DNA from: Vibrio neptunius
GTDB taxonomy: Bacteria; Pseudomonadota; Gammaproteobacteria; Enterobacterales; Vibrionaceae
Direction of reading: 5' to 3'
Assembly: GCA_019339365.1 (NCBI GenBank)
Contig: CP079860.1
Location: 992,001-1,056,000 of the forward strand
Length of the DNA: 64,000 nt
Under the pieces are notes generated by a model. The model had not been told where the DNA came from, did not search any database, and saw nothing but the letters and a program-made list of their open reading frames with translations. The translations under genes were made by a program, and so were the position numbers. This document shows positions 3,664 through 45,008 of this stretch, in pieces; within the stretch, counting starts at the first letter, position 1, and each line of letters starts with the position of its first letter.

Positions 3664-3715
3664 TTACAGCCAGGTTGGAAAAACTAATTGTTAACAACAA
3701 ATAAGGAACGAAACA

Positions 3716-24692: not shown

Positions 24693-24728
24693 ACAAGATG
24701 GCAGCTGTGTAGGACATGAGGTGATCTA

Positions 24729-26749: not shown

Positions 26750-27625
26750 ATGACTGAACCGACCATGGAGCGTATCAACCAATGCCTAGCCCAAGCCAAC
26801 TTTTCAGCGGTGGCAAAAATTAAGTCTTACTTCCAGATATGGGAAGTGATAGATGCCATTCTTAAAGATAGCAACTTTAGTGAAGAAACCAATTTTGAAC
26901 GAATCCGAGTATTACTTAGGGCTGGTATCTTAACCGAGCTCAATGTTCTGGAATACTATAATAGTGATGTCGAAGATATGGACTTGTCTTATGAACACTG
27001 TCCATTGGTCAAAATACTGGCGCCATTAGAGCGCGATGGTACCTTATATCTATCCGGCTCGGAAACTATTTACCAACTTGGCCAAGATTTTTATTTGGAT
27101 TATATAAAAAATATAATTTTACTCGGCGGAAGAGTGGATCATGATGGCTTGCTGTACTGGGTCTTTGACGGCAGAAGTGAGTTTGAAATGTTCAACTATC
27201 TTCTGGATAACTTCCATATAAAACCAGAGGCCATTAACTTTGCTGCGGGAGCAATAATACTTAATAATTATTGGAAAAAGCGTAATTCAGAAGAAAAAGG
27301 CAGGGCTGCATTTAAAAAGTTAATTGAAAAAGGCATCGATATTAATCTGCCTTTCAATAATGGCAATGACTTTAATTCTTTCTTGGGGCTCGTGTTTTGC
27401 CTTGATCCTATTGTGTTTGAGCAGTATTTATTACAAAAACCCAATCAACACATTATCGCTGATTTACCATGGGGTTTTGCGATTGAGAATGAATACTTTC
27501 ATGATAAGCAATTGCAATTGGTTAAAAAACTGATGGAATTGGGCTATCAGCTTCCGCTGGATGAGGTCATCGAGTTACTGGAAGAACAAGAGCTGGACGA
27601 TTACGCAAAAGCCCTTGCCCACTAA
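26750..27625 (+). CDS. ankyrin-like putative immunity-module protein B, copy 1
   Basis: A 291-residue acidic helical protein starting two bases after protein A's stop. Several helix pairs look like degenerate ankyrin repeats (for example KKLIEKGIDINLPF and VKKLMELGYQLPLDE). A full paralogue is at 30771; a truncated 5' copy is at 33527 and a 3' remnant at 41080. It is probably an accessory immunity or adaptor protein that binds a partner. Not assigned to a named family. Confidence 0.6.
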   Translation: MTEPTMERINQCLAQANFSAVAKIKSYFQIWEVIDAILKDSNFSEETNFERIRVLLRAGILTELNVLEYYNSDVEDMDLSYEHCPLVKILAPLERDGTLYLSGSETIYQLGQDFYLDYIKNIILLGGRVDHDGLLYWVFDGRSEFEMFNYLLDNFHIKPEAINFAAGAIILNNYWKKRNSEEKGRAAFKKLIEKGIDINLPFNNGNDFNSFLGLVFCLDPIVFEQYLLQKPNQHIIADLPWGFAIENEYFHDKQLQLVKKLMELGYQLPLDEVIELLEEQELDDYAKALAH

Positions 27626-27756
27626 GCTGACGCTCGCCCCTAAGCCTATTCTGCTAAGGGGCTTATATTTCCCCTCAATACATCTTAGTGATAAAACGCT
27701 TTTCATATGCTGATAGGTGGTTAGAGAAGAGATCAAATTGACGACGGGGCGTCATT

Positions 27757-27801
27757 ATGAATGAAGTAAGTATCGAACATATTGAACAAAGTCTAATCTA
27801 A
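27757..27801 (+). pseudogene. decayed 5' remnant of protein B
   Basis: ATG followed by NEVSIEHIEQSLI and a stop mirrors the start of protein B (TEPTIEHINQCLA). Further weak similarity continues in the bases that follow. An equivalent, more decayed remnant lies near 31766. Each repeat unit thus holds a dead extra copy. Confidence 0.5.
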
Positions 27802-27911
27802 ACCAAATTTTCAACCTTAACATTGACGAAACTTTATGACGTTATTGGGTTATGTTGTTGAACTCCAGCTTGATTTGACAACGCTTAATCAAAAAAACTA
27901 AGGAAATAACC

Positions 27912-28892
27912 ATGGACACTAACCACGACACAGCAGAGCTAGAGCAAATGTTAATCAGGCTCAAACTAGACGACTCCGCGTTGAGTGAGATTAAAAACCA
28001 AACCCCTGAACTTTGCAATATTGCGATCCAAGCTCACCCCGAAGCATTGCAGTATGTACAAACCCAAACCCCTGAACTGTGTCTTACAGCAGTAAAGCTC
28101 AGTGGATGGGCACTACCCCATGTAAAAGAACAAACCGCAGAGATTTGCCTTGAGGCGGTTAAGCAAACTGGCTACGTATTACGCTTTGTCAAACAACAAA
28201 CTCCAGAGATTTGTTTGGCTGCCATTCAACACAGTGCTTTAGCGCTCCAACAGGTAAAGGAACAGACACCGGAGCTTTGCTTGGCAGCGGTTAAGCAAAA
28301 TGGCAATGCGTTACGTTTTGTAAAACAGCAGACCCCTGAGATATGTGCTATTGCGGTTACTCAGAACGGCTATGCAATAGAGCATGTTAAAGAGCAGACC
28401 CCTGAGCTGTGTCTTGCTGCGGTAACGCAAGATGGCAATATATTAGAGCATGTAAAACAGCAGACGCCGGAACTTTGCCTTGCAGCGGTAAGGCAAAATG
28501 GCAACGCACTACGCTATGTCAAAGAGCAGAGCGCTGAGATTTGCCGCGAAGCGGTAAAACAAAATGGCCGCGTATTATCAATGGTACAAGATCAAACCTC
28601 TGAGATCTGTCTTGAGGCGGCAAAGAATTGTGGTTCTGTATTACAGGAAATTGATCAGCAAACGCCTGAAATTTGTCTTGCAGCGGTAACGCAGAACGGT
28701 ATGGTATTAAATTATGTAAAAGAGCAAACCCCTGAGATTTGTCTTAAAGCGGTAAAACAAAATGGTTACGCACTACGCCATGTAAAACAACAAACGACCG
28801 AGATTTGTTTGGCAGCGGTAAAGCAAAATAGCCACGTATTAAAGTATGTAAAAAATCAAACCCCTGAGATTCTTTTAGCTGCGGGTAAGTAG
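27912..28892 (+). CDS. DUF4116-like repeat protein C, copy 1
   Basis: A 326-residue protein behind AAGGAAAT made almost wholly of about 14 tandem 22-residue repeats with consensus QTPEICLAAVKQNGxALRxVKE. Each repeat has one Cys in a fixed place, so the fold is a helical solenoid like DUF4116 proteins. No signal peptide. It lies in the immunity module with its own palindromic terminator, and a copy with shifted repeat composition is at 31908. It probably acts by protein binding. Repeats at the DNA level favour expansion and contraction. Confidence 0.7.
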   Translation: MDTNHDTAELEQMLIRLKLDDSALSEIKNQTPELCNIAIQAHPEALQYVQTQTPELCLTAVKLSGWALPHVKEQTAEICLEAVKQTGYVLRFVKQQTPEICLAAIQHSALALQQVKEQTPELCLAAVKQNGNALRFVKQQTPEICAIAVTQNGYAIEHVKEQTPELCLAAVTQDGNILEHVKQQTPELCLAAVRQNGNALRYVKEQSAEICREAVKQNGRVLSMVQDQTSEICLEAAKNCGSVLQEIDQQTPEICLAAVTQNGMVLNYVKEQTPEICLKAVKQNGYALRHVKQQTTEICLAAVKQNSHVLKYVKNQTPEILLAAGK

Positions 28893-28921
28893 GGTAGAAA
28901 GCTCACGGCTCTACAAAAAAC

Positions 28922-28984
28922 AGGGCGTTTAATAGTCTGAGACAGATTGTTTTTAAATGTCTTAAACACTGGTTAAACGCCCTT
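28922..28984 (+). terminator. long palindrome/terminator of unit 1
   Basis: AGGGCGTTTAA (28922-28932) pairs with TTAAACGCCCT at the far end, with a bulged inner stem; A-rich bases follow. The same structure is at 32918-32977 after copy 2. Confidence 0.55.
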
Positions 28985-29368
28985 AAAAATCTATGACTTA
29001 TCGAGATAAATAAGCAGTGCTCCCAAGCTGCTAGTAACTTGATTTTATCGCTCTTATGGCTGGCTGGACGAGATAACGCGCAATAAAAAACTTAGGGATA
29101 TTGTGCTCAGTACCGAACAGGACTATGAACTACTATGGTGATTGACGGTTATTTTAAACTCGATGCCGCGAGTTATTTACAGTGCCCGGTAAAGGCCCAT
29201 TTGGGGCATAAGGTGATTGGCGTTGAACCCGATTTGGCGTTTGATCTAACCCTAACTCCACCTCGGGTGTTTATCCGTAATGAGCTGGTGGACCTGTTAG
29301 GTGTAGTGGTTTAATGATCCCGGACACCAAATTAGGTGGTAAAGTCTCCACCATACATGAGGTGTTCA

Positions 29369-30528
<1,160 letters not shown>

Positions 30529-30770
30529 CCACTACAAGGTGAGCTTACGCCTAAGCTGATTCAGGGCGCTTACCTTAACCCAAACAATACTCATGCCTAT
30601 CAAAACTTTCGCGTGATCACCGCAGACCACTTTAGCCTGCCTAAAGTGGAGGCCGACGATGCCCTGCCCGCAGTATTTTACTACCAGCAAGCTATTTACC
30701 TTTCACTAACACTGCTGGACGAAATGACGCGCAATAAAAAACTTAAGGATATTGAATACAGAGTATAAAT

Positions 30771-31655
30771 ATGACTGAACCGACCATAGAACACATCAAC
30801 CAATGCCTAGCCCAAGCCAACTTTGCAGCGGTGGCAAAAATTAATTCTTACTACCAGATATGGGAGGTGATAGATGCCATTCTTGAAGATAGCAACTTTA
30901 GTGAAGAAACCAATTTTGAACGAATCCGAGTATTACTTAGAGCTGGTATTTTAACCGATCTAAACATTCTGGAATTTTATAATAGTGATGTCGAAGATAT
31001 GGACTTGTCTTATGAACATTGCCCACTGGTCAAAATACTGGCGCCACTAGAACGAGATGGAACCTTATATTTATCTGACTCTGAAGCTATTTACGAGCTC
31101 AGTTGGGATCTGTATCTGGATTATATAAAAAGTATTGTCTTGCTCGGCGGAAGAGTAGACCATGATGGATTATTGTGTTGGTTGTTTGATGATAGATACG
31201 AAGTTGAGATGTTTAATTACTTAATGGACAATTTCAATATAAAAAAAGAGACAGTAAACTATGTTGCAGCACAATTATTATACAAGAAATACTGTAGCGA
31301 TGAAGAGCCAGATGAGGAAGATAGGGCTTTGTTTAACCGGTTAATTGAAAAAGGTATTGATATTAATCTACCTTTCGATGAAAACTCTCATATGTCTGCA
31401 TTTCACTCATTTCTCGGTGCTGCTTTATTTTGTTCACCTGATCTTTTTGAGCAATATCTATTACAGAGACCTAGCCAAGAGATTATTAAAAACTTACCTT
31501 GGTCATACCCTATTAGCGAAGCTGCTTTCACTGACAAACACTTACATTTAATAAATAAACTTATCGAGCTCGGTTATCATGTCCCTGTAGATGAAATAAT
31601 TTCGGAACTAGAAGAATACGAATATTTTGATTACGCCAAAGCCCTTGCTCATTAA
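30771..31655 (+). CDS. ankyrin-like putative immunity-module protein B, copy 2
   Basis: A 294-residue paralogue of the gene at 26750. The first 120 residues are nearly identical; residues about 150-260 diverge (for example EPDEEDRALFNRLIEKG), and both end in DYAKALAH. The variable middle against conserved ends suggests that the middle faces the bound partner. Its start is two bases after the split protein A copy. Confidence 0.6.
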   Translation: MTEPTIEHINQCLAQANFAAVAKINSYYQIWEVIDAILEDSNFSEETNFERIRVLLRAGILTDLNILEFYNSDVEDMDLSYEHCPLVKILAPLERDGTLYLSDSEAIYELSWDLYLDYIKSIVLLGGRVDHDGLLCWLFDDRYEVEMFNYLMDNFNIKKETVNYVAAQLLYKKYCSDEEPDEEDRALFNRLIEKGIDINLPFDENSHMSAFHSFLGAALFCSPDLFEQYLLQRPSQEIIKNLPWSYPISEAAFTDKHLHLINKLIELGYHVPVDEIISELEEYEYFDYAKALAH

Positions 31656-31907
31656 GCTGACTCTGCCCCTAAGCTTATTCTGTTTAGGGGTTTATACTGT
31701 CTATACCTCAACGATAAAGTGCCCGGCGGTAAGAGAAGAAGTCAAATTGATTACAGGGTGGGGTTATGAATTAAGTTATTATCGAAAATATTGACCAAGG
31801 TCTAATCTAAGCCAAGTTTGTAAACTTAACATTGATGATACTGGGTTATGTTGTTGAACTCCAGCCTGATTTGACAACGCTTAATCAAAAAAACTAAGGG
31901 AATAACC

Positions 31908-32888
31908 ATGGACACTACCCACGACAAAGCAGAGCTAAGCAAAGTTTTAATCAGGCTCAAACAAAACGGCTCCGCGTTGAGTGAGATTAAAAACCAAACC
32001 CCTGAACTTTGCAATATCGCGATTCAAGCTCACCCCGAAGCATTGCAGTATGTACAAAACCAAACCCCTGAACTGTGTCTTACAGCAGTAAAGCTCAGTG
32101 GATGGGCACTACCCCATGTAAAAGAGCAAACCGCAGAGATTTGCCTTGAGGCGGTTAAGCAAACTGGCCACGTATTACGCTTTGTCAAACAACAAACTCC
32201 AGAGATTTGTTTGGCTGCCATTCAACACAGTGGTTTAGCGCTTCAACAGGTAAAGGAACAGACACCGGAGCTTTGTTTGGCAGCGGTCAAGCAAAATGGC
32301 AACGCACTACGCTATGTAGAACAGCAGACCTCTGAGATATGTTTTGCTGCGGTTAGGCAGAACGGATACGCACTAGAACATACAAAAGAGCAGACCCCTG
32401 AGCTGTGTCTTGCCGCGGTCAAGCAGAATGGCGAGGTACTAGAACATGCAAAACAGCAGACGCCGGAACTTTGTCTTGCAGCGGTAAGGCAAAATGGCAA
32501 CGCATTACGCTATGTCAAAGAGCAGACCCCCAAGATTTGCCTTGCTGCAGTAAAGCAGAGTGGATGGGCAATAATGCATGTAAAGGAGCAAACCCCTGAG
32601 CTTTGTCTAGCAGCGGTTAAACAAAATGGGTTGGCAATAAAGTATGTACCAGAGCAAACCCCTGAGCTTTGTCTGGAAGCAGTAAAGCAAAACGGCTACG
32701 TGTTAAGAGAAATAAAAAAACGGACACCTGAGATTTGTTTAGCAGCAGTAAAGCAAAATGGCCATGTATTAAGCTGTGTATCAGAGCAAACTCCCGAGAT
32801 TTGTTTGGCAGCGGTAAAGCAAAATAGCGACGCGTTAAAGTACGTAAAAAAGCAAACCCCTGAGATTCTTTTAGCTGCGGGTAAGTAG
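31908..32888 (+). CDS. DUF4116-like repeat protein C, copy 2
   Basis: A 326-residue paralogue of 27912 with the same 22-residue, one-Cys repeat. The first seven or so repeats and the last repeat match copy 1; the middle differs by substitutions within repeats (WAIMHVKEQ, LAIKYVPEQ, KRTPEIC). Equal length with internal divergence points to gene conversion or shuffling between repeats. Confidence 0.7.
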   Translation: MDTTHDKAELSKVLIRLKQNGSALSEIKNQTPELCNIAIQAHPEALQYVQNQTPELCLTAVKLSGWALPHVKEQTAEICLEAVKQTGHVLRFVKQQTPEICLAAIQHSGLALQQVKEQTPELCLAAVKQNGNALRYVEQQTSEICFAAVRQNGYALEHTKEQTPELCLAAVKQNGEVLEHAKQQTPELCLAAVRQNGNALRYVKEQTPKICLAAVKQSGWAIMHVKEQTPELCLAAVKQNGLAIKYVPEQTPELCLEAVKQNGYVLREIKKRTPEICLAAVKQNGHVLSCVSEQTPEICLAAVKQNSDALKYVKKQTPEILLAAGK

Positions 32889-32917
32889 GGTAGAAAGCTC
32901 ACGGCTCTACAAAAAAC

Positions 32918-32977
32918 AGGGCGTTTAATAGTCTGAGCGTGATTGTTTTTTACATGTCTCGCACACTAAACGCCCTT
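32918..32977 (+). terminator. long palindrome/terminator of unit 2
   Basis: AGGGCGTTTA and its partner TAAACGCCCT bracket a bulged inner stem, as at 28922. The inner arms differ between the two copies. Confidence 0.5.
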
Positions 32978-33128
32978 AAAAAATCTATGACTTATCGAGA
33001 TAAATAAGCAGTGCTCCCAAGCTGCTAGTAACTTGATTTTATCGCTCTTATGGCTGGCTGGACGAGATAACGCGCAATAAAAAACCTAGGGATATTGTGC
33101 TCAGCAGCGAACAGGACTATGAACTACT

Positions 33129-33524
33129 ATGGTGATTGACGGCTATTTTAAACTCGATACCGCGAGTTATTTACAGTGCCCGGTAAAGGCCCATTTGGGG
33201 CATAAGGTAATTGGCGTTGAACCCGATTTGGCGTTTGACCTAACCTTAACCCCGCCACGAGTATTTATCCGCAATGAGCTGGTGGACTTGCTGGGTGAGC
33301 TTACGCCTAAACTGATCCAAGGCGCTTATCTTAATCCAAACAATACTCATGCTTATCAAAACTTTAGCGTGATCACCGCAGACCACTTTAGCCTGCCTAA
33401 AGTGGAGGCCGATGATGCCTTGCCCACGGTATTTTACTACCAGCAAGCTCTTTACCTTTCACTGGCCCTGCTGGACGAGATGACGTGCAATAAAAAACTT
33501 AAGGATATTGAATACAGAGTATAG
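33129..33524 (+). CDS. putative immunity-module protein A, copy 3
   Basis: A 131-residue protein nearly identical to the 26352 product (differences near the end: PTVFYYQQALYLSLALLDEMT). The frame is intact and preceded, as in the other copies, by the last codons of the Imm43-like gene. Confidence 0.65.
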   Translation: MVIDGYFKLDTASYLQCPVKAHLGHKVIGVEPDLAFDLTLTPPRVFIRNELVDLLGELTPKLIQGAYLNPNNTHAYQNFSVITADHFSLPKVEADDALPTVFYYQQALYLSLALLDEMTCNKKLKDIEYRV

Positions 33525-33526
33525 CC

Positions 33527-33703
33527 ATGACTACAAAGACCATTGAAAACGTCAACCACCTCCTTATCCAAGCCAACTTGCCTCCAGTAACAGATAAACG
33601 TGTGGATATGTGGAATGCGCTCCCTGCCATTCTGTGGGACAAGAAACTTAGTCAAGACATCAACTGTGAACCAGGGCGCGAGCATACTTTGATTAATTTA
33701 TAA
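33527..33703 (+). pseudogene. truncated protein B, copy 3 (5' part)
   Basis: A 58-codon frame starting two bases after protein A copy 3. Its start (TIENVNHLLIQANLPPV) aligns with protein B but is the most diverged copy, and it stops at the edge of the ISAs1-like remnant. The matching 3' end appears at 41080-41208, so about 7.4 kb of foreign DNA now separates the halves. Confidence 0.7.
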
Positions 33704-33704
33704 C

Positions 33705-34590
33705 CCAAAGAATACTTGTGCTCTGTAATCGTAACACTAACCCGCTTTTTTTAGTTTTTGTCTTTGGCTTGGAGCACCGCACTCACATTGTTTGAGCATG
33801 TTCATCACAAAGCGTCTAAACAAAGCAATATTTTCCACAGCACCCTCTAAACAGATTCGTGAACTGTCTTCGTTAAAAACAACATCTAAAACATAGTGTT
33901 GGCTGTTTTTGATTCGCCAGTGTTGACGGATATAATGACCAAGTAGCTTGTGGTTGGGTGAAAGAGAGTTGATATGATACGAGGTATCTACAGTCCCTTT
34001 CCCGTTGATGGTACGATGACGTTCTACGGCAATAATACTGCGTATTGTTGGCCACTTTTCCGCGAGTTCCTGAGGTAGCTTTGCTTTGAGTTGAAACACA
34101 ATACGCTCTTCTTTTCTCCCATGCAGAGTCTGCGTTACTTCCGTCACCACTTTTTCTTTCTTCACGTCAAAAATGGCTTGAAATTGAGATACAACGGCAT
34201 CTCTCAACTTAGGTTGTTTCTTCTTTACTTGGACAACAACATGGGCGTTTTTCGCCGCCATTTTTTTAATATCTTACGCTGACAATGTAATGCATCAACG
34301 GTGATAATACTACCTTTAACGTTAATAATATCAAGCATCTGCCGTACAACATTAATTTCGCCATTCTTTGTTTCTGTCGGTTTCTGGCTGAGAACAAGAC
34401 CACGCTCTGTATCGTAGGCAGTGACCGGTTGTAGTGCCGTTTTGGGGTGAGAGCGATAAGAACCGCGAAGTACTTTTCCATCGAAAGCGATAACGGGTTT
34501 ACTCTGATTTTCTCTTTGCTCATTAATCCACAATGCGAGAGCTTCGAGTAAAGACTCGGCGATCCCGCCCTGAACTCTTGCTTGGGTATA
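33705..34590 (-). mobile_element. ISAs1-family element remnant
   Basis: Minus-strand transposase sequence with ISAs1 marks but no complete ends. It marks the left edge of the AT-rich operon inserted into the immunity array. Boundaries are approximate. Confidence 0.65.
33737..34533 (-). pseudogene. ISAs1-family transposase, truncated and frameshifted
   Basis: Two minus frames, 34533-34225 and 34261-33737, join if the A-run at 34261-34267 (seven) had eight bases. The N-terminal part shows KPVIAFDGKVLRGSY and GSIITVDALHCQR. The C-terminal part shows HYVLDVVFNEDSSR, RIKNSQHYVLD and the family's basic end. The first 80 or so residues of a full ISAs1 transposase are missing. Confidence 0.75.
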
Positions 34591-34734: not shown

Positions 34735-35680
34735 ATGGCCAAGAAAAAATATTTTAATGATTATTATCTAAAGCATAACCCTCTATTAACGCAAAGACTA
34801 GGATGGATAGCTATTGGATTATATTGTTTAGCGACTGCTGTATCATCCGTTTGGGTTAACTATTCGTTCTCGACTTTTAATTCAGAGGCACTAATATTTT
34901 TTACTGTATTGGTTGCTCAGATTTCATTCATTACATTATGCTATTTAAAACAAGGTGATTTTACTTTTTTTATTATCAATAACTTTAAATCAGTAGCGAT
35001 TTTGAATGTATTAACGCTATTTTGTTGGTTGTTTATGTTCATGGCTCTTCAGAAAATCGAAGCCTCTGTAGAGTCAGCTATATATCAAGGATGGATACCA
35101 ATAATTGTAATTGTTGTGGAGTATTTAATACATAAGGAAATACCTAAGAAGAGTCTTATTATATCAGTGTTGTTCTTGGCTTTTTTCTTGGGATTACTTG
35201 GTTACACTAGAGTTTATTTTGAAGGTGGTATAAATGACTCTTTGATACAAGGGGTTATATACGCGTCCATAGCAGGAGTAACAGCAGCTTTGTATATGGT
35301 GTACTCTGAGTTTCTTTTTTTATAAGAGAGGATTTACTGTTTTAAATATTTTAGCATCGAGGTTTATAATGTTACTCGTTTATATTGTTTTCTCAAGCTA
35401 TGATTCCATAAGGATTCTATATGAATCAGAAGTTACGATATTGGTAAGCATGGCTATATTATCTCTCACATTTATAGTGGCTCCAATATATTTATTACAG
35501 TATTCAATAGTGACGTTGGGGTCGAGTCGAGTTTCAATTATAACACCTTTAGTTCCAAGTTTTTCACTGGGTTTAGAATATTTTTATGTATCTTGGGTCA
35601 ATTATTTTGTGCCTATTTTAGTAATTCTTGTTTGCATTAGTGTTTTATTTGCAAATTATTACAAGTCGAAAAAACGGTAA
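34735..35680 (+). pseudogene. DMT/EamA-type exporter, frameshifted at T7
   Basis: Starts at ATG 34735 behind AAAAGGA and encodes about ten membrane helices in two frames. Frame one stops at 35325, frame two runs to 35680. Removing one T from the run at 35315-35321 joins them as YSEFLFYKRGFTVLN, giving about 314 residues, the usual EamA length. It would export the product of the following enzymes. The shift may be an assembly error or a phase-variable switch. Confidence 0.7.
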
Positions 35681-35689
35681 GGGAATAAA

Positions 35690-36379
35690 ATGGAAGTTAC
35701 GAAGAGTAAATGTGAAGTTATTGAAGTAATTAAAAGCATGATCGAGGAGTCTAATATAAACGAAAACCAATTTTATAAAACATTTAGAGAAAAAAAGTTA
35801 CCATTAGAGAAAATAAAATCGATTTTTCAACAATATTACTTTTACATAAGAACTTTTCCTGAGATTTTATCAGGTTTAGCTCCGCGTGTAGATGACGAAC
35901 TAATTAGATTGAAGATTAGTCGGACTGTTGTGTCCGAGTTGGGCGATGGGAGAGGTGCCCCACATTTTGCGATGTTTGAAGAGTCTCTAAGTGCTATAGG
36001 AGTTACTTTGGATGATTACAAATCTGTAGATTATACGACTGAAACTCGACAATTAATTGATGATCTAAATAGATTGTTTTTGGAAGAAAATCCTAATAAA
36101 GCAATAGGTGCTCACTATGTCATCGAAGAATTTGGACTTCCGATGATCATAAATTTATATGAAGGATTTAGACTCTATGATGGTTGGAAACATGAAGATT
36201 TCAATTATTTTTATCTACATATATTAATTGAATCTAATCATGTTGACTGGATCCAAGATGCATTGGTTGAAGCTAGTAAAGGTGGAGATGGGGCTAGAGA
36301 AGAATTAATATCTGGGGCCAGTGAAGTTTTGCAATCACTAACAAACTTCTGGAATGGACTTCATCGATTAACGAAATGA
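35690..36379 (+). CDS. heme-oxygenase-like diiron oxidase (HDO) family enzyme
   Basis: A 229-residue all-helical enzyme of the TenA/PqqC/HDO fold. Candidate iron ligands are E83, H92, E146 (or E147), H177, E181 and H184. The last three are spaced H-x3-E-x2-H, as in CADD, UndA, SznF and BesC-type oxidases. Such enzymes use O2 to cleave, oxidise or cyclise amino acids or fatty acids. It is nine bases after the exporter. Given the neighbours, an amino-acid-derived substrate is likely. TenA-type thiaminase is less likely because the metal ligands are retained. Confidence 0.75.
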   Translation: MEVTKSKCEVIEVIKSMIEESNINENQFYKTFREKKLPLEKIKSIFQQYYFYIRTFPEILSGLAPRVDDELIRLKISRTVVSELGDGRGAPHFAMFEESLSAIGVTLDDYKSVDYTTETRQLIDDLNRLFLEENPNKAIGAHYVIEEFGLPMIINLYEGFRLYDGWKHEDFNYFYLHILIESNHVDWIQDALVEASKGGDGAREELISGASEVLQSLTNFWNGLHRLTK

Positions 36380-36454
36380 TCTCAATTTAAAGCAGCAGTT
36401 TTAATTATTCTGCTGCTAATTTTTAATATTTTTAAAAATTAGATAGGAGATGGT

Positions 36455-37555
36455 TTGAATAATATTTATGGATATATGTCTAAGTTATCAAAAATGAAGT
36501 CATCAATTAATCTCTCTCAAGGGCTACCTATAAATATATATGATAGAGATTGGAGTGAATTTATGTCATCTGGAGAGGGATGTAATTGGCAATACATGCC
36601 TGTACAAGGCGCTATATTGCTTAATAGTAGAATAAAATCTATGTATGGGGATAATTATCACTCAATTATAACTTCTGGTTGTACAGAGTCACTTTTATGT
36701 AGTATGTATTGCTTAAAGACCCTGGGATATGAATCAATTGTCGTACCAGAACCATTCTATTCCTACTATCCAATGATGTGTAAAATGGCAGGGATTAGAT
36801 TTATTTCTAGTAGACTTTTAATAAATGATTATCAATTTGAAATAAATATAAATGATGTTAGAAAAAAAATAAATAATAAAACAGCAATATTGATCAATAC
36901 GCCACATAATCCTACAGGAATGGTTATTTCTAGCAAGGTGTGGCAGGAGATAATAAGTATATGCACAGAAAATAATTCATTTTTATTGGTTGATGATGTA
37001 TATAGAGAGTTCAACTATACTTCCAGTAAAATACCATATAATGAGCTATCTGGGATAATTGAACAAGTTTTAATTTCAGGCTCACTTTCTAAGTCCTTAG
37101 CAGCTTCCGGTTTAAGGGTAGGTTGGTTAGTTGGTTCAAAAAAAAATATAAGAATTTCCAACTCCTACCACATGCATATGTCAAATTGTACTGCAGATAT
37201 AATTCAGCGTGCGGCTGCTAGTATGATAGATAGGTATGGTGGTGAGGGTGCAAATAGATTCAGAAAATACTATAAAGAAAATCGTAATATCCTTTACTCA
37301 ACACTTATTAATAAAGGTATGAAGGCCTATTATCCAAGAGGTGGTCACTTTGTAACTGTTGACTGTAATGATTTGACAACTTCTAAATCCGCAAAAGAAA
37401 TATGTATATCTATAACAAATCAATGCGGAGTGACACCGCTTCCCCTGGATGAATTTCATACAAGTAAAAGTAAATTTATTCGATTCTCTTTTTCCGTTAG
37501 GCGCCCAGATTTACTTACAGCATGTGATAGGTTAAGTAGCTTAAATATAGGTTAA
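36455..37555 (+). CDS. PLP-dependent aminotransferase, class I/II
   Basis: A 366-residue fold type I aminotransferase. TTG 36455 lies five bases after GGAG. Key residues are visible: NTPHNPTG (PLP Asn at about 152), VDDVYREF (Asp and Tyr), SGSLSKSLAASGLRVGW with the Schiff-base Lys at 213, and a late FIRFSFSVRR with the substrate Arg. It resembles the alanine/aspartate/kynurenine-aminotransferase group. In the pathway it would interconvert an amino acid and its 2-keto acid. Confidence 0.88.
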   Translation: MNNIYGYMSKLSKMKSSINLSQGLPINIYDRDWSEFMSSGEGCNWQYMPVQGAILLNSRIKSMYGDNYHSIITSGCTESLLCSMYCLKTLGYESIVVPEPFYSYYPMMCKMAGIRFISSRLLINDYQFEININDVRKKINNKTAILINTPHNPTGMVISSKVWQEIISICTENNSFLLVDDVYREFNYTSSKIPYNELSGIIEQVLISGSLSKSLAASGLRVGWLVGSKKNIRISNSYHMHMSNCTADIIQRAAASMIDRYGGEGANRFRKYYKENRNILYSTLINKGMKAYYPRGGHFVTVDCNDLTTSKSAKEICISITNQCGVTPLPLDEFHTSKSKFIRFSFSVRRPDLLTACDRLSSLNIG

Positions 37556-37559
37556 ATCG

Positions 37560-38612
37560 ATGAAAGATAAATATATAATTTTGGGCGGTGGCCCTTCTGC
37601 CGCTCTGATAACGAAAAGGTTAATTTCTGAGGGGAAAAAAGTTTTAATTATTTCCGACAAGTTAGGTGGTTCCATGTCTTGTATGGGATATAAACAACTG
37701 CAGTCATACAAGAACGAGCTTGATATTAAACATCATGAAAAAGCTATAAACGATTATATTTTCGACAATTCTTTAACCCCAAATGCTGCTAATTATATAG
37801 ACTATATAACAGATTGTATTAAAAGTTATCCGATTGAAGTGGTTCTAGGATTTGTTTCATTTATAGAGGAAAGGAAAGATATTTATTCCTGCCACGTAAT
37901 AATCAATGGAGATATAGTAGAATTTGAAACTAAAAATTTGATAATTGCTACAGGAATAAAACCTAGGAATATCCCAAGTGTGATAGATTCTTATAATACA
38001 ATAAATTGTTTTTCAGCATATCAATTTTTTGAATCTGATAAATGTCTAGAAAAAATTGGTTACGAAGTTTTTATAATTGGTAGCGGAAATTCAGCCTTCC
38101 AAATTGCTACTTCAGCCTATGAAAGGGGGTTTAAATCAACCGTATTAGCTCGTGAATATCTAGGAGTTTATCCACAAGAAAATCAGGATCGGTTTGCACT
38201 CAGAGCACCATCTCAAAAGGCCATTGAATATATATGGAAATCTCAGAGTTCTTCTGAGTTGGTAGAGTCACGCTTTTTAATATATAGCAATCTCTCTCGC
38301 TCTAAAGATTGCATTTCAGCCCTGGTTGAAAGCAAAAAAAATAACAATCATATTGCAAGACGTTGTTACGATAATCTATCAGTTGAAGAGGATTACGGTA
38401 ATAAAGTGATTTCTATAAGTATCAAAGATTCTATAGTTATTTCAGCGATTGGTACAATTGGTAATTTGCCAGATAATAATATCAAGGGACTGTATTTAAA
38501 CGATAAAGGTTTTGTTAGTAAAATTAAATCTAAGTCTGTAAATAAAAATATTTCCGTTATAGGCACTTTAGCTGGAGCTAGATCTATTAATACGATGGAG
38601 TGTTATAACTAA
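37560..38612 (+). CDS. FAD/NAD(P)-dependent oxidoreductase
   Basis: A 350-residue flavoprotein with an N-terminal FAD Rossmann motif ILGGGPSAALITKRL, an internal ATGIKPRNIPS motif typical of thioredoxin-reductase-like and FMO-like enzymes, a second nucleotide site FIIGSGNSAFQIA near 172-186, and an ending SVIGTLAGARS. No CxxC redox pair is seen, so it is not a thioredoxin reductase; a monooxygenase or dehydrogenase is more likely. The gap to the aminotransferase is four bases. Confidence 0.8.
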   Translation: MKDKYIILGGGPSAALITKRLISEGKKVLIISDKLGGSMSCMGYKQLQSYKNELDIKHHEKAINDYIFDNSLTPNAANYIDYITDCIKSYPIEVVLGFVSFIEERKDIYSCHVIINGDIVEFETKNLIIATGIKPRNIPSVIDSYNTINCFSAYQFFESDKCLEKIGYEVFIIGSGNSAFQIATSAYERGFKSTVLAREYLGVYPQENQDRFALRAPSQKAIEYIWKSQSSSELVESRFLIYSNLSRSKDCISALVESKKNNNHIARRCYDNLSVEEDYGNKVISISIKDSIVISAIGTIGNLPDNNIKGLYLNDKGFVSKIKSKSVNKNISVIGTLAGARSINTMECYN

Positions 38613-38625
38613 GGGGAAAGTTAAA

Positions 38626-39510
38626 ATGTTGATTAATGAGTTAAAGGATGGTTTTGGTTGTAGACTGAGTGAACTCGACCTTTCAAAAGGAAAAGTTGAT
38701 GATGATTTAATATTAAAGATTAAGAATATCCTTTTTAAATATAAAGTTATAATTATAGAAGACCAATTTTTTTCCGATGAAGAATATTTATCTTTTATGT
38801 CAAAATTGGGGAAGCCGATTACTCATATTCTATCTGAATTCGCTCTAGAGCATATGCCAGAAATAATAAAAATATCGAACTATGTTGATTCCGATGCTAG
38901 GGAGCACGGTGTCCTTTATGGTGGTGCTTACTGGCACAGTGACATGGCTTATCGTAAAGAGGTTGGTGTTGCGACTTCGTTATATGCAATAAATGCTCCT
39001 AAAAATGGGCCGAAAACAATGTTTCTGGACTTAGAATCAGGGCTTAAATCTATCGTTAATAATACTAATTTTCATAGGGAGTTATCAGAGATTTATGGCC
39101 TTGATTTACAGTCAACTAAAGTGCTTCACAAATTTGGTAACAGAAGAAAAATTACAGATAAGGAGGAATGTGAGCAAAAATTATCAAGCGAAAAATGTAA
39201 AGATCATGAACATTGCCTGCATGACCTTGTAGTAAGACATCCAATTACTGGCACAGCCTCACTATTTGCTACTAGTGGAAGCTCATTTAAAATTCAAGGA
39301 AAAAGCGAACTAGAATCTATTTTTATTTTGAATTTATTGGAAGATTTTATTTTTGAAAATTCGAAATATTATGAACACTCTTACACTAAGGGTGAGATAA
39401 TTATTTGGGATAATATTTCTACTATTCATTGCGGTAAAGGCATTTCACCTTGTGAATCAAAAGAGGGTAGCAGAATTTTACACAGGATTAATATTCATTA
39501 TGGAGAGTAG
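38626..39510 (+). CDS. TauD/TfdA-family Fe(II)/2-oxoglutarate dioxygenase
   Basis: A 294-residue oxygenase. The iron facial triad is visible as WHSDMAY (H104, D106) and the distal TIHCGKG (H268), with R287 in RINIHYGE for 2-oxoglutarate. Such enzymes hydroxylate, halogenate or desaturate free amino acids and similar small molecules. AGGGGAAAG precedes ATG 38626. It is tightly packed between the FAD enzyme and the ligase. Confidence 0.88.
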   Translation: MLINELKDGFGCRLSELDLSKGKVDDDLILKIKNILFKYKVIIIEDQFFSDEEYLSFMSKLGKPITHILSEFALEHMPEIIKISNYVDSDAREHGVLYGGAYWHSDMAYRKEVGVATSLYAINAPKNGPKTMFLDLESGLKSIVNNTNFHRELSEIYGLDLQSTKVLHKFGNRRKITDKEECEQKLSSEKCKDHEHCLHDLVVRHPITGTASLFATSGSSFKIQGKSELESIFILNLLEDFIFENSKYYEHSYTKGEIIIWDNISTIHCGKGISPCESKEGSRILHRINIHYGE

Positions 39511-39511
39511 T

Positions 39512-40780
39512 ATGATAAAAAATCTAGTTTTAATTTCTCAGACTTACATTGGTTTAGGTTCTGATATTATTTTAGGAATGCTATCCAGCAGAGTTAAAAT
39601 TACTTTATTTATAAGCGAAAGTGAGGATGTTGATGATAGAATTATTCCTTACCTAGATAAAATCTACAAAGTTTCGAGCTCACTGGATAGTAGCCTACGT
39701 CCCGTATTGTCCCATGAAAATATAATAGAAATTTTGCTTGATGAGATCTCTGATATCAACCCTTCTAATAGTTTTTCTATATTTTGCCAGCAAGAAGATA
39801 ATGTATTGACTGCTGCGTATGTTAGAGAGGCTCTAAATATCAAAGGAGATTTGCCAAGCGACATGTTGAAGTTCAGAGATAAGTTACTAATGAAGGAAAT
39901 AGTTGGAAAATTAATGAGCAATAGCATTCCTAAACATACGTGTTTAGATGTTGGTCGAGCGAAAAGTAGTGAAAAAGAATATTATGAAAATTTGACTAAA
40001 ACGTTAGGAGAGATCTTGGTTATAAAACCTACAAGTGGGGCAGGTAGTGTAAATGTTAAAATTGTAAATAATTTATATGATTTTCAAGATTTTATCGAAA
40101 TGATAGAGGATAATAAATATAATTTTTCCTATGAGGTTGATGAGTTTATAGAAGGTAAAATGTATCAGTGTGATTCAATAGTTGTGGACGGCAAAGTTTA
40201 TTTTTCGGGTATCTTGGAATTAGGGTGCTCTAACTTTGACTTTGTCTTAGGAAAGCCTTTATCAGTTTTCCCTGTCCTCGATAAGAAATTACATGAGATA
40301 TTATCAATTTTCAATCAGAGTGTAATAGATGCTCTTGGTTTTCGTAACGGCTCCACTCACTTAGAAGTGTTTGTTTCAAACGACAATGGAAAAATTACGT
40401 TTCTAGAGATAGCAGCTCGTGTGCCCGGTGGAATTGGGGTCCCTTATCACAAAAAAAATAGTAATGTTAATATGGTTGATGCAACCCTATTGTTGAGCTG
40501 CGGGTTAGATATTAAGCAGTACATTAAACCTAAATGTAGCAACAATGTTGTTTCAGCCTTACTGCCTGTTCAGAATGGTAAAGTGCTCGAATTACTGGAG
40601 CCCAGATTGCAAAGTCAATACGAACTACAATGGCATATCTCAGTTGGTGACATTGTAGAATCAAACTCTCTTGTTGACACTGCAGGTGTTTTAACCTTTT
40701 TTAATGATGATTTGGTCCAATTAAGAGCTGACTTTGAAAGCTTGCAAGCCTATTGCCCTGTTCGCGCTGTCGAAATTTAA
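39512..40780 (+). CDS. ATP-grasp ligase
   Basis: A 422-residue ligase starting at ATG 39512, behind GGAGAG, one base after the dioxygenase stop. ATP-grasp marks are VIKPTSGAGSVNVK (nucleotide lid), the EVDEFIEGKMYQCDSIV block, and the metal-binding HLEVFVSNDNGKITFLEIAARVPGG. It is closest in style to L-amino acid ligases (BacD/YwfE type) and carnosine-synthase-like enzymes. It probably joins the oxidised amino acid to another amino acid. It ends the operon. Confidence 0.88.
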   Translation: MIKNLVLISQTYIGLGSDIILGMLSSRVKITLFISESEDVDDRIIPYLDKIYKVSSSLDSSLRPVLSHENIIEILLDEISDINPSNSFSIFCQQEDNVLTAAYVREALNIKGDLPSDMLKFRDKLLMKEIVGKLMSNSIPKHTCLDVGRAKSSEKEYYENLTKTLGEILVIKPTSGAGSVNVKIVNNLYDFQDFIEMIEDNKYNFSYEVDEFIEGKMYQCDSIVVDGKVYFSGILELGCSNFDFVLGKPLSVFPVLDKKLHEILSIFNQSVIDALGFRNGSTHLEVFVSNDNGKITFLEIAARVPGGIGVPYHKKNSNVNMVDATLLLSCGLDIKQYIKPKCSNNVVSALLPVQNGKVLELLEPRLQSQYELQWHISVGDIVESNSLVDTAGVLTFFNDDLVQLRADFESLQAYCPVRAVEI

Positions 40781-41025: not shown

Positions 41026-41079
41026 AGCCACATATGGCGTCGTTGACCTTCAAACTGATTTGATCATTAACAACGCCAC

Positions 41080-41208
41080 TTCCATGATAAACAACTGCAA
41101 TTGGTTAAAAAACTGATTGGGTTGGGCTACCAGCTTCCTCTGGATGAGATCATGGAGTTACTGGAAGATGAAGAGCTGGACGATTACGCCAAAGCCCTTG
41201 CTCATTAA
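41080..41208 (+). pseudogene. 3' remnant of protein B
   Basis: The bases from the HDK...LQLVKKL segment to the closing DYAKALAH stop are a near-exact match to the end of the 26750 gene. No start or upstream frame remains. This is the other half of the copy broken at 33703. Confidence 0.8.
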
Positions 41209-41502
41209 GCTGACTCTGCCTCCTAAGCTTGCCCTGATGACGGCCTGTCGCCAACACATCTCAGTGATAAACGCCCTTCGGGTCTTATAGGACGAGTTTG
41301 TGCGAGTGCGTTTGCTAAAATGGAAAAGTGGGCGGGTAGGCTTGGAGCGGGTGGTACGGTTTTAATGACCCAGTGATTGGTTGTGGTGCAGGCGAGATGA
41401 TGGTTTGTATCAGTAGAAGCGCCGTCACCTTCAAATAAGGCTATTCAGCCGGGCACTTTTACGATGTAATGAGCGCCAATCGATGATTTAGGAATACAAC
41501 AG
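41209..41502. other. intergenic region at the end of the accessory block
   Basis: About 290 bases between the last immunity remnant and YaiI. No ORF, tRNA or strong repeat was seen. The base composition returns to that of the chromosome. Confidence 0.4.
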
Positions 41503-41961
41503 ATGAAAATTTGGGTTGATGCAGATGCGTGTCCAGTGGTGATCAGAGACATTCTTTTTAGGGCTTCTGAGCGAACTGGTGTGGAAGTCACCTTGGTGGC
41601 GAACCAGTTTATCCGCACCCCTGCTTCTCCAAAAGTGACCATGCTTCAGGTTCAGGCTGGTTTTGATGTGGCAGACAATGAGATTGTCCAACGTTGTGAG
41701 GCGGGCGATTTAGTCATCACCAGTGATATCCCACTGGCCGATGAGATCATTACCAAAGGCGGCCATGCGTTGAGTTCTCGGGGTGAACAGTTTACGAAAG
41801 AGAACATAAAATCTCGTCTTAATATTCGTGATTTTATGGAAACCATGCGCAGTAGCGGTGTACAAACAGGGGGGCCAGCGCCCTTGAACCAAGCCGATCG
41901 ACAGCAATTTGCTAACCACTTGGACAAATGGCTAGTACAGTGGCAAAGGGCACAAAAGTAG
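41503..41961 (+). CDS. yaiI: YaiI/YqxD (DUF188) family protein
   Basis: A 152-residue protein with the family start [15 protein letters not shown], a PIN-like acidic arrangement ([11 protein letters not shown]) and the SSRGEQF end block. The length matches E. coli YaiI exactly. PIN-like nuclease activity is suspected in the family but not shown. AGGAA precedes the start. Nine bases separate it from the LysR gene. Confidence 0.92.
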
Positions 41962-41970
41962 GAGTAGGGC

Positions 41971-42924
41971 ATGTCCTTGGTTAACCAGCTATCACTGTTT
42001 ATTGATGTTGTGCAGCAAGGGTCTTTCACCAAAGCGGCCACCTTGCACAACATGGATAATTCGTCATTATCGAAACAGATCAAAAAACTGGAATCTGAGC
42101 TCGGTGTCCAGCTTCTCAATCGCTCTACTCGTTCCTTTTCCTTAACACCTGCAGGTGAAGAGATTTTGGAACAAGCCCACAGTCTGGTGGACACACTCGG
42201 GCATGTTCATTCGATTGCCGATTCTTATCAGGCAAGACCAAAAGGGCGAATACGCATCACAGCGCCCTTACATATTGGTCAACATTACCTTCAGCCTGTG
42301 ATTACGCAATTTATGCGCAGCTACCCTGAGGTTGAAATTAACCTGCAAATGGATGATAAGCGTTCCGACATCATTTCTGATCATTTTGATGTTGCGTTTC
42401 GCCTTGGTCGGCTGGAAGATTCGAGTTTGATTGCGAGGAAAATCGCCGATATCAGGCCGGTAATTTTGGCGTCTGAACGCTTTATTACGCAGTATGGTGA
42501 TCCTCAAACCCCCGAGGAGTTAATGCGCTTACCTTCGGTGGTCTACAGCAATGGGCCACTCACCGTGGATACGGCTCGTATTAGTGAAACACCAGAGGGC
42601 AGTCGCTTCATTAATCACAAAATGACGGGGAAATATAAGGTCAATGATGTGCTGACCTTATTGGCGGCAGTCCAAGATGGATTGGGCTATGCCATGATTT
42701 CATCCTCCAATCTCTATTGTCCCGTTGCCGACATCAACCTCAAGCCACTGCTCACTCATTACGGCTTATGTAATCGTGGGCTCGCACTCTACGCCTTGTA
42801 CCCACATCGCAAGCAAACCGCTTTAGTGAGAGAGTTTATCTCGGCAGTGAAGGCCCATATCGGAACGCCGCCCATTTGGGAAAAGCACGTCCCCAATTTT
42901 TCTCAGCTATACCCAGCCCGCTAA
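41971..42924 (+). CDS. LysR-family transcriptional regulator
   Basis: A 317-residue regulator with an N-terminal winged HTH (residues about 5-62: GSFTKAATLHNMDNSSLSKQIKKLE) and a CrgA-type effector-binding domain (RGRIRITAPLHIG). GGAGTAGGGC precedes ATG 41971. It follows yaiI directly and converges on the BCCT gene. The target is unknown. Confidence 0.92.
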   Translation: MSLVNQLSLFIDVVQQGSFTKAATLHNMDNSSLSKQIKKLESELGVQLLNRSTRSFSLTPAGEEILEQAHSLVDTLGHVHSIADSYQARPKGRIRITAPLHIGQHYLQPVITQFMRSYPEVEINLQMDDKRSDIISDHFDVAFRLGRLEDSSLIARKIADIRPVILASERFITQYGDPQTPEELMRLPSVVYSNGPLTVDTARISETPEGSRFINHKMTGKYKVNDVLTLLAAVQDGLGYAMISSSNLYCPVADINLKPLLTHYGLCNRGLALYALYPHRKQTALVREFISAVKAHIGTPPIWEKHVPNFSQLYPAR

Positions 42925-43035
42925 ATGATGGGTATTGCGTTGTCGCGGGCATGTTTTTGCGTCATTGGTGTGCCTAGAGGGACAGTGGCGCTCAGTTCGC
43001 TGTGTCCTGCCAATCAGTTTAGATAGGCATAAAAA

Positions 43036-43064
43036 AATCGGAAACCGACACTGGGTTTCCGATT
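43036..43064. terminator. bidirectional terminator
   Basis: AATCGGAAACC pairs perfectly with GGTTTCCGATT between convergent LysR and BCCT genes. A-rich and T-rich bases on the two sides suit both strands. Confidence 0.75.
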
Positions 43065-43129
43065 GTGTTTGTATACTGGCAGTTGTGTTCTGCTCTCAAT
43101 TCACTTTGCGTTATGATGCGAACGAGTGA

Positions 43130-44722
43130 TTAGGCGTAGCTTAACTTATGGTGTTGCAACTCGGTACGCATGCCCATCAACAAGCTGACACACATGGTGA
43201 GTAGAATCACGGTAAATGGTAAGCCAGTTGAGATGGTTCCGGCCTGTAATGCCTGAATCGCCTCTGTACCACCAACCCAAAGCAGCATGGCGGCGATAGC
43301 CCCTTCAACTGAGGCCCAGAAGATGCGTTGTGGGATAGGAGCATCGACTTTACCGCCTGCTGTAATGCTGTCGACAACCAAAGAGGCGGAATCAGAAGAG
43401 GTGATAAAGAACACCATGATCAGCACAATAGAAATCACAGACAGTACTGTTCCCATTGGCATAGCATCAAAGGCATAAAACAGAGAGAGCGTAATGTCGG
43501 TCAAACCATTCTGACCTAGCTCACCAACTTGATTGACCACTTGTTCAATGGCCAGGCCACCAAAAGCAGACATCCAAACCACTGTGATAGCGGTAGGGAT
43601 CAAGATCACCGCTGAAAGGAATTCGCGTACTGTACGACCTTTGGAAATACGAGCGATAAACATACCAACACATGGTGACCAAGATACCCACCAAGCCCAG
43701 TAGAATACGGTCCAACCGTGCATCCAAGCTTCGTCTTCGCGTCCATAAGGGTTACTCAGTGGAAGCATGTTTTCTACATAGCCGGTTAGCGTTGTGGGAA
43801 TCGTACCCAATGCCGTCGCTAGTCCAGCAATGATCACAAACATCAGTAGGGCGAAAGCCACAAGCAGGTTGATGTTGCTGAGGACTTTCACGCCACCATC
43901 AATGCCGCGGACAACCGACATCACCGCCAGACTGGTAACAAAGGCAATCACACCGAGTTGTAACCCTAGGCCACTATCGATACCAAAGACATGGCTGATA
44001 CCACTGGCAGCTTGTTGAGCGCCTAGGCCCAATGAGGTAGCAAGACCAAATAGTGTCGCCAGGACAGCAAGGGTATCGATGATATGACCAAACCAGCCCC
44101 ATGTGCGGTCACCCAAAATTGGATAAAACACGGAGCGAATGGAAAGTGGTAAGCCTTTATTGAATGCAAAGAATGCCATCGCAAGTGCGACTACGGCGTA
44201 AATCGCCCATGGGTGAAGGCCCCAGTGGAACATTGTGGCGCCAAGGGCGACTTTAGCTGCTTCTTCAGTGAATGGCTCGACACCAAGTGGTGTTTCAAAC
44301 CAGCCAGTGAAGTAAGCAACGGGTTCGGCAACGCCCCAGAACATCAGACCGATGCCCATCCCGGCGGCAAACAGCATTGCAATCCATGACAGGTTGGAGT
44401 GCTCAGGCTTAGCGTCGACACCGCCGATACGAATTTTACCAAATGGAGATAAAACCAGACCAATACAAAAAATCAGAAACACATTGCCTGACCACATAAA
44501 CAGCGTATCAAATGACTCAATGATTTGCAGTTTTACGCCATCAAGAGTGGATTTTGCAACGTTAGGGTCGGCGATAAGAAGGGCGATAAGAAAGACAATG
44601 ATCAGGCCAGCACTGGCACCAAAAACGGGATTGTGAACGTCAAAACCCCATTTCTGAACGTTGTCTTGGCCGACGGTATAATCGGTATTTTCAATACTAT
44701 ACCTATCCTTATTACTACTCAT
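43130..44722 (-). CDS. BCCT-family betaine/carnitine/choline transporter
   Basis: A 530-residue sodium- or proton-coupled transporter with 12 membrane helices. The BCCT signature is present: MGIGLMFWGVAEP and GWTVFYWAWWVSWSPCVGMFIARISKGRTVREF, the latter holding the Trp box that binds quaternary amines. The length is typical for uptake of glycine betaine or similar osmolytes. It fits with the proXWV importer 9 kb away as salt-stress defence. The substrate within the family cannot be fixed. Confidence 0.93.
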   Translation of the reverse strand: MSSNKDRYSIENTDYTVGQDNVQKWGFDVHNPVFGASAGLIIVFLIALLIADPNVAKSTLDGVKLQIIESFDTLFMWSGNVFLIFCIGLVLSPFGKIRIGGVDAKPEHSNLSWIAMLFAAGMGIGLMFWGVAEPVAYFTGWFETPLGVEPFTEEAAKVALGATMFHWGLHPWAIYAVVALAMAFFAFNKGLPLSIRSVFYPILGDRTWGWFGHIIDTLAVLATLFGLATSLGLGAQQAASGISHVFGIDSGLGLQLGVIAFVTSLAVMSVVRGIDGGVKVLSNINLLVAFALLMFVIIAGLATALGTIPTTLTGYVENMLPLSNPYGREDEAWMHGWTVFYWAWWVSWSPCVGMFIARISKGRTVREFLSAVILIPTAITVVWMSAFGGLAIEQVVNQVGELGQNGLTDITLSLFYAFDAMPMGTVLSVISIVLIMVFFITSSDSASLVVDSITAGGKVDAPIPQRIFWASVEGAIAAMLLWVGGTEAIQALQAGTISTGLPFTVILLTMCVSLLMGMRTELQHHKLSYA

Positions 44723-45008
44723 TAATCCTCGCTAATTATTTAGAGTTCGAAGTAAATTGTGCGGTGCAGGGTAGCAGAAGGTCAACCAAAACGAAAGTCA
44801 GTCAGGCTTTTTAACAATATTTGTATAAATAATGTAAGAAAGATTAGGTAGAGGTCTAATGAAATGTGTCAGTTCTGTAACCTGTGGCGTTGATGACTTT
44901 GGTTGGCGACCTGTCACTTTCGCTTCCTTGCTGTGTGAGTCATGGTTGAACGCCACAACGATGTAAATGGTTCCTTTCAGTAAGTCAGGCTATGGGCTAA
45001 ATCGCGGC

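What the first reader, a model, noticed from the sequence alone, without database searches (positions are those of the whole stretch)
34735..40780. AT-rich operon for a probable small modified amino acid or dipeptide
Exporter, HDO-type diiron oxidase, PLP aminotransferase, FAD oxidoreductase, Fe/2OG dioxygenase and ATP-grasp ligase are packed with gaps of 1-75 bases and much lower GC than the flanks. Known parallel: bacilysin uses oxidation, transamination, ATP-grasp ligation and an exporter. The exact set, in particular HDO plus Fe/2OG plus FAD enzyme with an ATP-grasp ligase, is not one I can match to a known pathway, so the product may be new (antibiotic or signalling metabolite).
Basis: partly seen in the sequence, partly recalled or inferred. 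Interest (0 to 1): 0.85.

Follow-up and report, generated by a model that had tools for sequence, protein, structure and literature searches.

The report
Mobile six-gene modified-amino-acid operon
A marine bacterium carries a foreign-looking block of six genes, also found in plant-associated and soil bacteria and on two plasmids, that probably builds, joins and exports a small unusual amino-acid product; the product is not known and the exporter gene looks broken in this strain.

Summary
Window 34735-40780 encodes an EamA exporter, an HDO-type diiron oxidase, a class I/II PLP enzyme, a flavoprotein, a TauD-type Fe/2OG enzyme and an ATP-grasp ligase: one strand, gaps of 1-75 bases, 32.8% GC against 46.7% for the rest of the window. 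One correction: the exporter is split into two reading frames, while V. splendidus has an unbroken 317-aa relative (90-93% identical).

It is a conserved cassette, not a chance grouping. Of 16 relative loci examined for gene content, 11 carry all six families together and a twelfth is cut by its contig end. They lie in Pseudomonas, Enterobacterales, Burkholderia and Catenulispora, two of them on plasmids. It was not found in a same-species genome.

Best reading: a horizontally spread pathway that turns an amino acid, perhaps a basic one, into an oxidised non-protein amino acid, ligates it into a di- or oligopeptide and exports it. It works like the Bes and mangotoxin pathways but failed tested features of both. 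No description of this gene set was found in ten paper searches. Substrate, step order, product and activity are inferred.

The parts
34735..35325 (+). EamA/DMT-family exporter, first reading frame (196 aa), N-terminal two thirds
   Evidence: Pfam EamA 1.8e-8; 93% to residues 1-195 of the 317-aa V. splendidus protein P0121; in 12 relative loci a single frame of 315-340 aa from the first start taken by the script
35369..35680 (+). EamA exporter, second reading frame (C-terminal third); frame disrupted between the two parts, near a run of T
   Evidence: 90% to residues 212-313 of P0121; no Pfam hit on its own; frames
35690..36379 (+). [quoted passage not shown]
36455..37555 (+). Fold-type-I PLP enzyme, 366 aa, TTG start with TAGGAGATGG upstream
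   Evidence: PF00155 2.2e-44; best NCBIfam hit GntC 184.8 bits against a cut-off of 415; K213, N152, D180, Y183, R221 invariant in 16 rows (one row, L012, holds an in-frame stop elsewhere); start
37560..38612 (+). FAD/NAD(P)H flavoprotein, 350 aa, monooxygenase- or reductase-like
   Evidence: Lys_Orn_oxgnase and Pyr_redox_2 above cut-offs; GGGP and GSGNSA motifs and a conserved LGxYPQExxDRFALR-like loop; fold near bacillithiol reductase, FMOs and N-hydroxylases
38626..39510 (+). TauD-type Fe(II)/2-oxoglutarate oxygenase, 294 aa
   Evidence: PF02668 8.5e-27; H104, D106, H268 invariant in 14 of 14 rows
39512..40780 (+). ATP-grasp L-amino-acid-ligase-like protein, 422 aa
   Evidence: PF13535; L-amino acid ligase 4wd3 E 1.2e-13; 54% to Prodigiosinella, 50% to Pantoea and Burkholderia cluster ligases
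33737..34533 (-). Transposase remnant in two frames, left border of the low-GC block
   Evidence: DDE_Tnp_1 hits in both pieces (3.4e-8 above cut-off; 0.0045 below it)
41077..44800 (.). Right flank shared with a same-species genome in which the HDO was not found
   Evidence: 97% over query 28-3751 at G020:C18; next to it G020 has genes of the repeat array

Best explanation
The block is a horizontally acquired biosynthetic operon. The HDO (O2-activating diiron), the TauD-type enzyme (C-H oxidation), the flavoprotein (perhaps N-oxygenation, otherwise reduction) and the PLP enzyme (transamination, or elimination/cyclisation after hydroxylation as in GntC- and VioD-type enzymes) together convert a proteinogenic amino acid, possibly a basic one (lysine, ornithine or arginine), into an oxidised non-protein amino acid. 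The ATP-grasp ligase then joins it, with ATP, to a second amino acid, giving a di- or oligopeptide. The EamA protein exports it. The likely use is as an antimetabolite against competitors; the peptide would ease uptake. Shown: families, conserved residues, conserved linkage, patchy spread, HDO not found in a conspecific genome. Inferred: substrate, order of steps, peptide product, activity. In this strain the exporter frame is interrupted, so this copy may be failing, unless the break is an assembly error.
For: Families and residues. Same six families together in 11 of 16 relative loci examined plus one cut by its contig end; HDO, PLP and flavoprotein also adjacent in 8 of 8 short Pseudomonas-group loci, some of them the same genomes. 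Gene distances across nine taxa correlate for all 15 gene pairs (Spearman 0.42-0.79, permutation p 0.001-0.019). Foreign origin: GC; HDO found only in the window's own genome among 148 genomes of the genus and 247 of the family, same-species G020 among the negatives; plasmid copies. Basic-residue leads: GntC, VioD and 3-methylarginine-transaminase hits for PLP enzymes, Lys_Orn_oxgnase hit and N-hydroxylase likeness of the flavoprotein, BesC likeness of the HDO, an acetylornithine deacetylase gene appended in 5 of 7 Pseudomonas-type loci. Parallel: mangotoxin = HDO + ATP-grasp ligases + EamA exporter (PMC13185094 and PMC3355146, passages).
Confidence: 0.67

Rival explanations
1. The product is specifically an arginine- or ornithine-pathway antimetabolite, like mangotoxin or pantocin B, made from arginine/ornithine; the ArgE gene in Pseudomonas copies is self-protection.
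For: An ArgE-family gene (373.6 bits against 297.7 for TIGR01892, tested in L006) and an MFS transporter follow the set in 5 of 7 Pseudomonas-type loci; GntC/VioD/3-methylarginine hits. The Vibrio and Prodigiosinella hosts have ArgE and no ArgJ match at E 1e-30.
Against: Two of seven Pseudomonas-type loci lack the appended ArgE; P. brassicacearum has three other ArgE-family genes, and Catenulispora has ArgJ without ArgE. ArgE could instead trim a biosynthetic intermediate.
Confidence: 0.28
2. The product carries an N-O function (hydroxylamine, oxime, nitro or N-heterocycle) and may bind metal, the HDO acting as an N-oxygenase with the flavoprotein.
Confidence: 0.24
3. A catabolic or detoxifying operon rather than a biosynthetic one.
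For: TauD, flavoprotein, transaminase and DMT permease families also occur in degradation (general knowledge).
Against: The ATP-consuming ligase is kept in 11 of 16 loci plus a cut twelfth; the set is rare and patchy (8 strong HDO matches in 348 Pseudomonas-group genomes, the seed genome included) and in two cases plasmid-borne.
Confidence: 0.08
4. A decaying, non-functional copy in this strain.
For: Exporter frame interrupted; transposase remnant and repeat array beside it.
Against: The five enzyme frames are open and keep the residues invariant in relatives; a single frame change may be an assembly error or be tolerated.
Confidence: 0.35

Closest known systems
Bes pathway (beta-ethynylserine, Streptomyces cattleya)
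   Same: HDO (29% identity to a place on the S. cattleya megaplasmid; solved BesC is the best PDB match); Fe/2OG, PLP and ATP-grasp members (cluster composition recalled)
   Different: Only the HDO matched in the fetched 12.6 kb (L063, unannotated, 6 kb each side). The TauD-type enzyme keeps its aspartate, so it is not a BesD-like halogenase.
Mangotoxin mbo operon (Pseudomonas syringae)
   Same: HDO, ATP-grasp peptide ligation, EamA exporter (PMC13185094, PMC3355146 passages)
   Different: mbo has two ligases, a flavin/Fe2S2 reductase MboB and an arginine deiminase MboE; here one ligase and no such Pfam hits, plus PLP and TauD enzymes.
GntC / VioD (guanitoxin, capreomycidine) PLP cyclodehydratases
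   Same: GntC is the best NCBIfam hit for the window's PLP enzyme; VioD also listed; a hydroxylase acting before such an enzyme is a recalled parallel
   Different: Far below the equivalog cut-offs; plain transaminase models outscore GntC in three of three relatives tested.
HrmI/HrmJ and BelK/BelL (nitrocyclopropyl amino acids)
   Same: HDO that oxidises lysine (HrmI, BelK: review PMC13108848, parts 1-3); second iron enzyme HrmJ/BelL recalled
   Different: 19-21% identity to HrmI; PLP, flavoprotein and ligase partners not part of the recalled comparison.
[quoted passage not shown]
   Same: Six genes, 5.7 kb, GC below its genome, found in Pantoea and Providencia (PMC11350110, PMC7744662 passages)
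   Different: pnp2E is called a ferredoxin reductase; its other listed carriers (Enterobacter, Proteus, Serratia, Pectobacterium) are not among the named HDO relatives, though many relatives are unnamed. Sequence not held, so not compared.
Bacilysin
   Same: ATP-grasp ligase, aminotransferase, exporter (recalled)
   Different: No prephenate decarboxylase or cupin among the Pfam hits; HDO, TauD and flavoprotein instead.

Membership tests
HDO superfamily | 3-His/3-carboxylate diiron ligand set | tested here: met
   E83, H92, E146, H177, E181, H184 invariant in 31 of 31 aligned rows, window included; mapped on BesC by the alignment
HDO superfamily | heme-oxygenase-like helical fold | tested here: met
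BesC equivalog (4-chloro-allylglycine synthase) | NF042919 score above cut-off | tested here: not met
   78.1 bits against 500
Bes pathway | radical halogenase with the triad carboxylate replaced (recalled) | tested here: not met
   H104-x-D106...H268 invariant in 14 of 14 rows
Bes pathway | BesA/BesB/BesD/BesE homologues | tested here: inconclusive
   tblastn on 12.6 kb of the S. cattleya megaplasmid around the HDO: only the HDO is significant; the record is unannotated and only 6 kb each side was fetched
Mangotoxin mbo operon | two ATP-grasp ligases, MboE deiminase/amidinotransferase, MboB flavin/Fe2S2 reductase | tested here: not met
   One ATP-grasp and none of the others among the Pfam hits of the operon
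ATP-grasp L-amino acid ligase | homology to solved ligases and conserved ATP-grasp core | tested here: met
   4wd3 1.2e-13; PF13535 above cut-off; E285, E299, R303 among residues invariant in 13 rows
ATP-grasp L-amino acid ligase | ATP-dependent peptide formation | not testable with these tools
   needs an enzyme assay
GntC cyclodehydratase | NF041364 score above cut-off | tested here: not met
   184.8 bits against 415
SidA/IucD N-hydroxylase | Pfam PF13434 above cut-off and N-hydroxylase fold | tested here: inconclusive
   PF13434 40.5 against 21.3 bits; Foldseek ranks a putrescine N-hydroxylase first, VIA a disulfide reductase (24.3) before FMOs (22.7 and below) and N-hydroxylases (21.9 and below)
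Bacilysin pathway | prephenate decarboxylase and cupin steps (recalled) | tested here: not met
   no such Pfam hit in the operon
PNP-2 cluster | sequence identity to MN329808 | not tested
   record not seen in any collection searched; only text passages seen

The most novel reading that the evidence does not exclude
The cassette defines an uncharacterised family of HDO-dependent peptide antimetabolites, spread between Proteobacteria and Actinobacteria, in which an HDO, a small flavoprotein, an Fe/2OG enzyme and a PLP enzyme act in series on one residue to install a warhead not yet described, made without any NRPS or ribosomal precursor.
Probability: 0.45. Interest if true: 0.78.

Novelty: new variant of a known kind. 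Interest (0 to 1): 0.52.

Why it matters
About a dozen HDOs had a tested function at the time of the review PMC13108848, many with unusual chemistry. A compact HDO-centred gene set found in Proteobacteria and Actinobacteria and on plasmids, small enough to rebuild in vitro, is a direct route to a new reaction and perhaps a new antimetabolite. The chemistry could not be predicted from sequence or fold here, so it is a real test case. The kind itself (HDO plus ATP-grasp ligase) is already recognised: PMC13185094 counts at least 25 such cluster types.

Tried and rejected
Anti-phage defence: no PADLOC hit for the five enzymes and no match to the HDO in phage records. Mangotoxin, Bes and bacilysin membership: rejected on the features listed above. 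Phaseolotoxin Pbo cluster (PMC8473136, one passage seen): has an ATP-grasp ligase and a 2OG enzyme, but the terms aminotransferase, TenA, TauD, EamA and acetylornithine do not occur in its main text. Pantocin B: no gene list was readable, so only its arginine link was used. ArgE as proof of an arginine target: weakened. Placing the HDO reaction by fold: BesC, CADD and HrmI are tied, so no reaction is assigned. Flavoprotein by fold: two programs rank different families first. Promoter and terminator scans gave no clear excess over shuffles (35 against 31.5, sd 6.0; 3 against 3.2). No tRNA gene in the window. The variant loci L003 and L013-L015 were only partly annotated. Two other ATP-grasp plasmid hits looked at: the Vibrio campbellii one is unannotated, the Pantoea stewartii one is a different gene set.

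Papers: PMC13185094 - abstract, introduction, part of the results, mangotoxin-structure section, discussion, part of the reference list, passages, not its supplement. PMC13108848 - parts 1-3 of 6. PMC11350110, PMC4010436, PMC7744662, PMC8473136, PMC3355146 - passages only. Statements on Bes, bacilysin and HrmJ/BelL composition and on VioD chemistry are recalled.

Full report
Check of the observation. The ORFs, families and gaps are as described. The block 34735-40780 has 32.75% GC against 46.68% for the rest of the window, and the lowest of 459 other stretches of equal length has 42.3%. The genes lie on one strand with gaps of 9, 75, 4, 13 and 1 bases after the exporter. The exporter is in two frames: 34735-35325 and, from its first ATG, 35369-35680. 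V. splendidus has one uninterrupted 317-aa protein; the two frames match its residues 1-195 (93%) and 212-313 (90%). The V. splendidus flavoprotein (95%, P0109) is listed with the same longest-contig length, 186,909 bases, so an intact operon probably exists there; I did not see that contig.

Is it a unit? A scan of 84,980 species genomes with two patterns from an alignment of the HDO gave 14 loci. Searching the six window proteins in them and reading two plasmid records (with exporter matches) shows all six families side by side on one strand in 11 of 16 loci: Prodigiosinella, seven Pseudomonas-type loci (L011 is titled only gamma proteobacterium L18), Catenulispora, and plasmids of Pantoea sp. 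CCBC3-3-1 and Burkholderia glumae. In two of the eleven a gene looks interrupted (flavoprotein of L008, PLP gene of L012). A twelfth, Mixta, ends inside the ligase gene. The other four are L003 (Streptomyces durbertensis: HDO, PLP, TauD and a distant flavoprotein; no match to this ligase in its genome), L013 (HDO with an amidohydrolase beside it) and L014 and L015 (distant variants with flavoprotein and PLP matches). Ten short loci from whole-genome searches, several from the same genomes, were also looked at: HDO, PLP and flavoprotein are neighbours in 8 of 8 Pseudomonas-group ones. The exporter is first in the window, Mixta, Prodigiosinella, Pantoea and Burkholderia, last in the seven Pseudomonas-type loci, and in Catenulispora the flavoprotein comes first. 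Distances between taxa correlate for all 15 gene pairs (nine of 16 taxa), although shared host ancestry adds to that.

Is it foreign? Among 148 genomes of the genus and 247 of the family only the window's own gave an HDO match. A draft genome of the same species, G020, shares the right flank at 97%, with repeat-array genes next to it, and has no HDO match. A broken transposase lies on the left. Elsewhere strong HDO matches (E 1e-80 or better, seed genomes included) are 8 of 348 in the Pseudomonas group and 1 of 394 in each of two wider groups; the weaker matches there (13, 3 and 8 genomes) are 19-28% identical and other HDOs. The host is probably Vibrio or a near relative: the flank matches Vibrio records at 86% over 39% of 4.5 kb and the operon's closest relatives are V. 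splendidus; the species is not settled.

How it probably works. The four oxidative or PLP enzymes build an unusual residue, the ligase makes a peptide of it, and the EamA protein exports it. A basic residue is favoured but not shown. In five of seven Pseudomonas-type loci an acetylornithine deacetylase (family tested in L006) and an MFS transporter (in two pieces in L012) follow in the same direction, and in seven of seven an HTH regulator lies upstream on the other strand. This suggests a link to arginine metabolism, but ArgE and ArgJ matches in five carrier genomes do not give a clean pattern.

Compared with the known. The kind (HDO with ATP-grasp ligase) is known from mangotoxin and Bes, and PMC13185094 reports at least 25 such cluster types, among which this one may well be. 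Tested defining features of Bes (halogenase) and mbo were not met. PNP-2 has a similar size and partly similar carriers and remains untested. In ten searches of the paper library I found no description of this six-gene set; the library lacks most subscription journals.

Verdict. A real, conserved, mobile operon with no product known to me from these searches, a new variant of a known kind, with a possibly disabled exporter in this strain.

Noticed in passing
window 23190-25805: A Tox-PAAR-like protein (PF13665, 2.7e-34) followed by an ORF with a weak AHH-nuclease match below cut-off: looks like a secreted-effector module upstream.
   Followed up: partly
window 26750-33579: Array of duplicated ORFs (291/294-aa pair, and two 326-aa ORFs of which the one tested has DUF4116 repeats) with long direct repeats (94% over 300 bases, 88% over 286) and an IS3-type transposase between; G020 has a similar array.
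   Followed up: partly
L006 16133-18705 and matching places in L007, L009, L011, L012: Acetylornithine deacetylase and metabolite/H+ symporter genes appended to the cluster in 5 of 7 Pseudomonas-type loci.
   Followed up: partly
L008 11853-12930; L012 7959-9080: The L008 flavoprotein gene matches in two frames and the L012 PLP gene holds an in-frame stop, so breaks or draft errors are not limited to the window.
   Followed up: partly
L013, L014, L015: More distant HDO relatives have an amidohydrolase gene next to the HDO (Pfam-tested in L013 and L015; similar by eye in L014) and, in L014 and L015, a 552-567-aa protein after the PLP gene; the L015 copy has no Pfam match.
   Followed up: partly
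window 41077-41228: Right flank holds what looks like a decayed copy of the C-terminal part of the repeated 291-aa ORF; it matches several places of the G020 array, so the operon seems to lie inside the array.
   Followed up: partly
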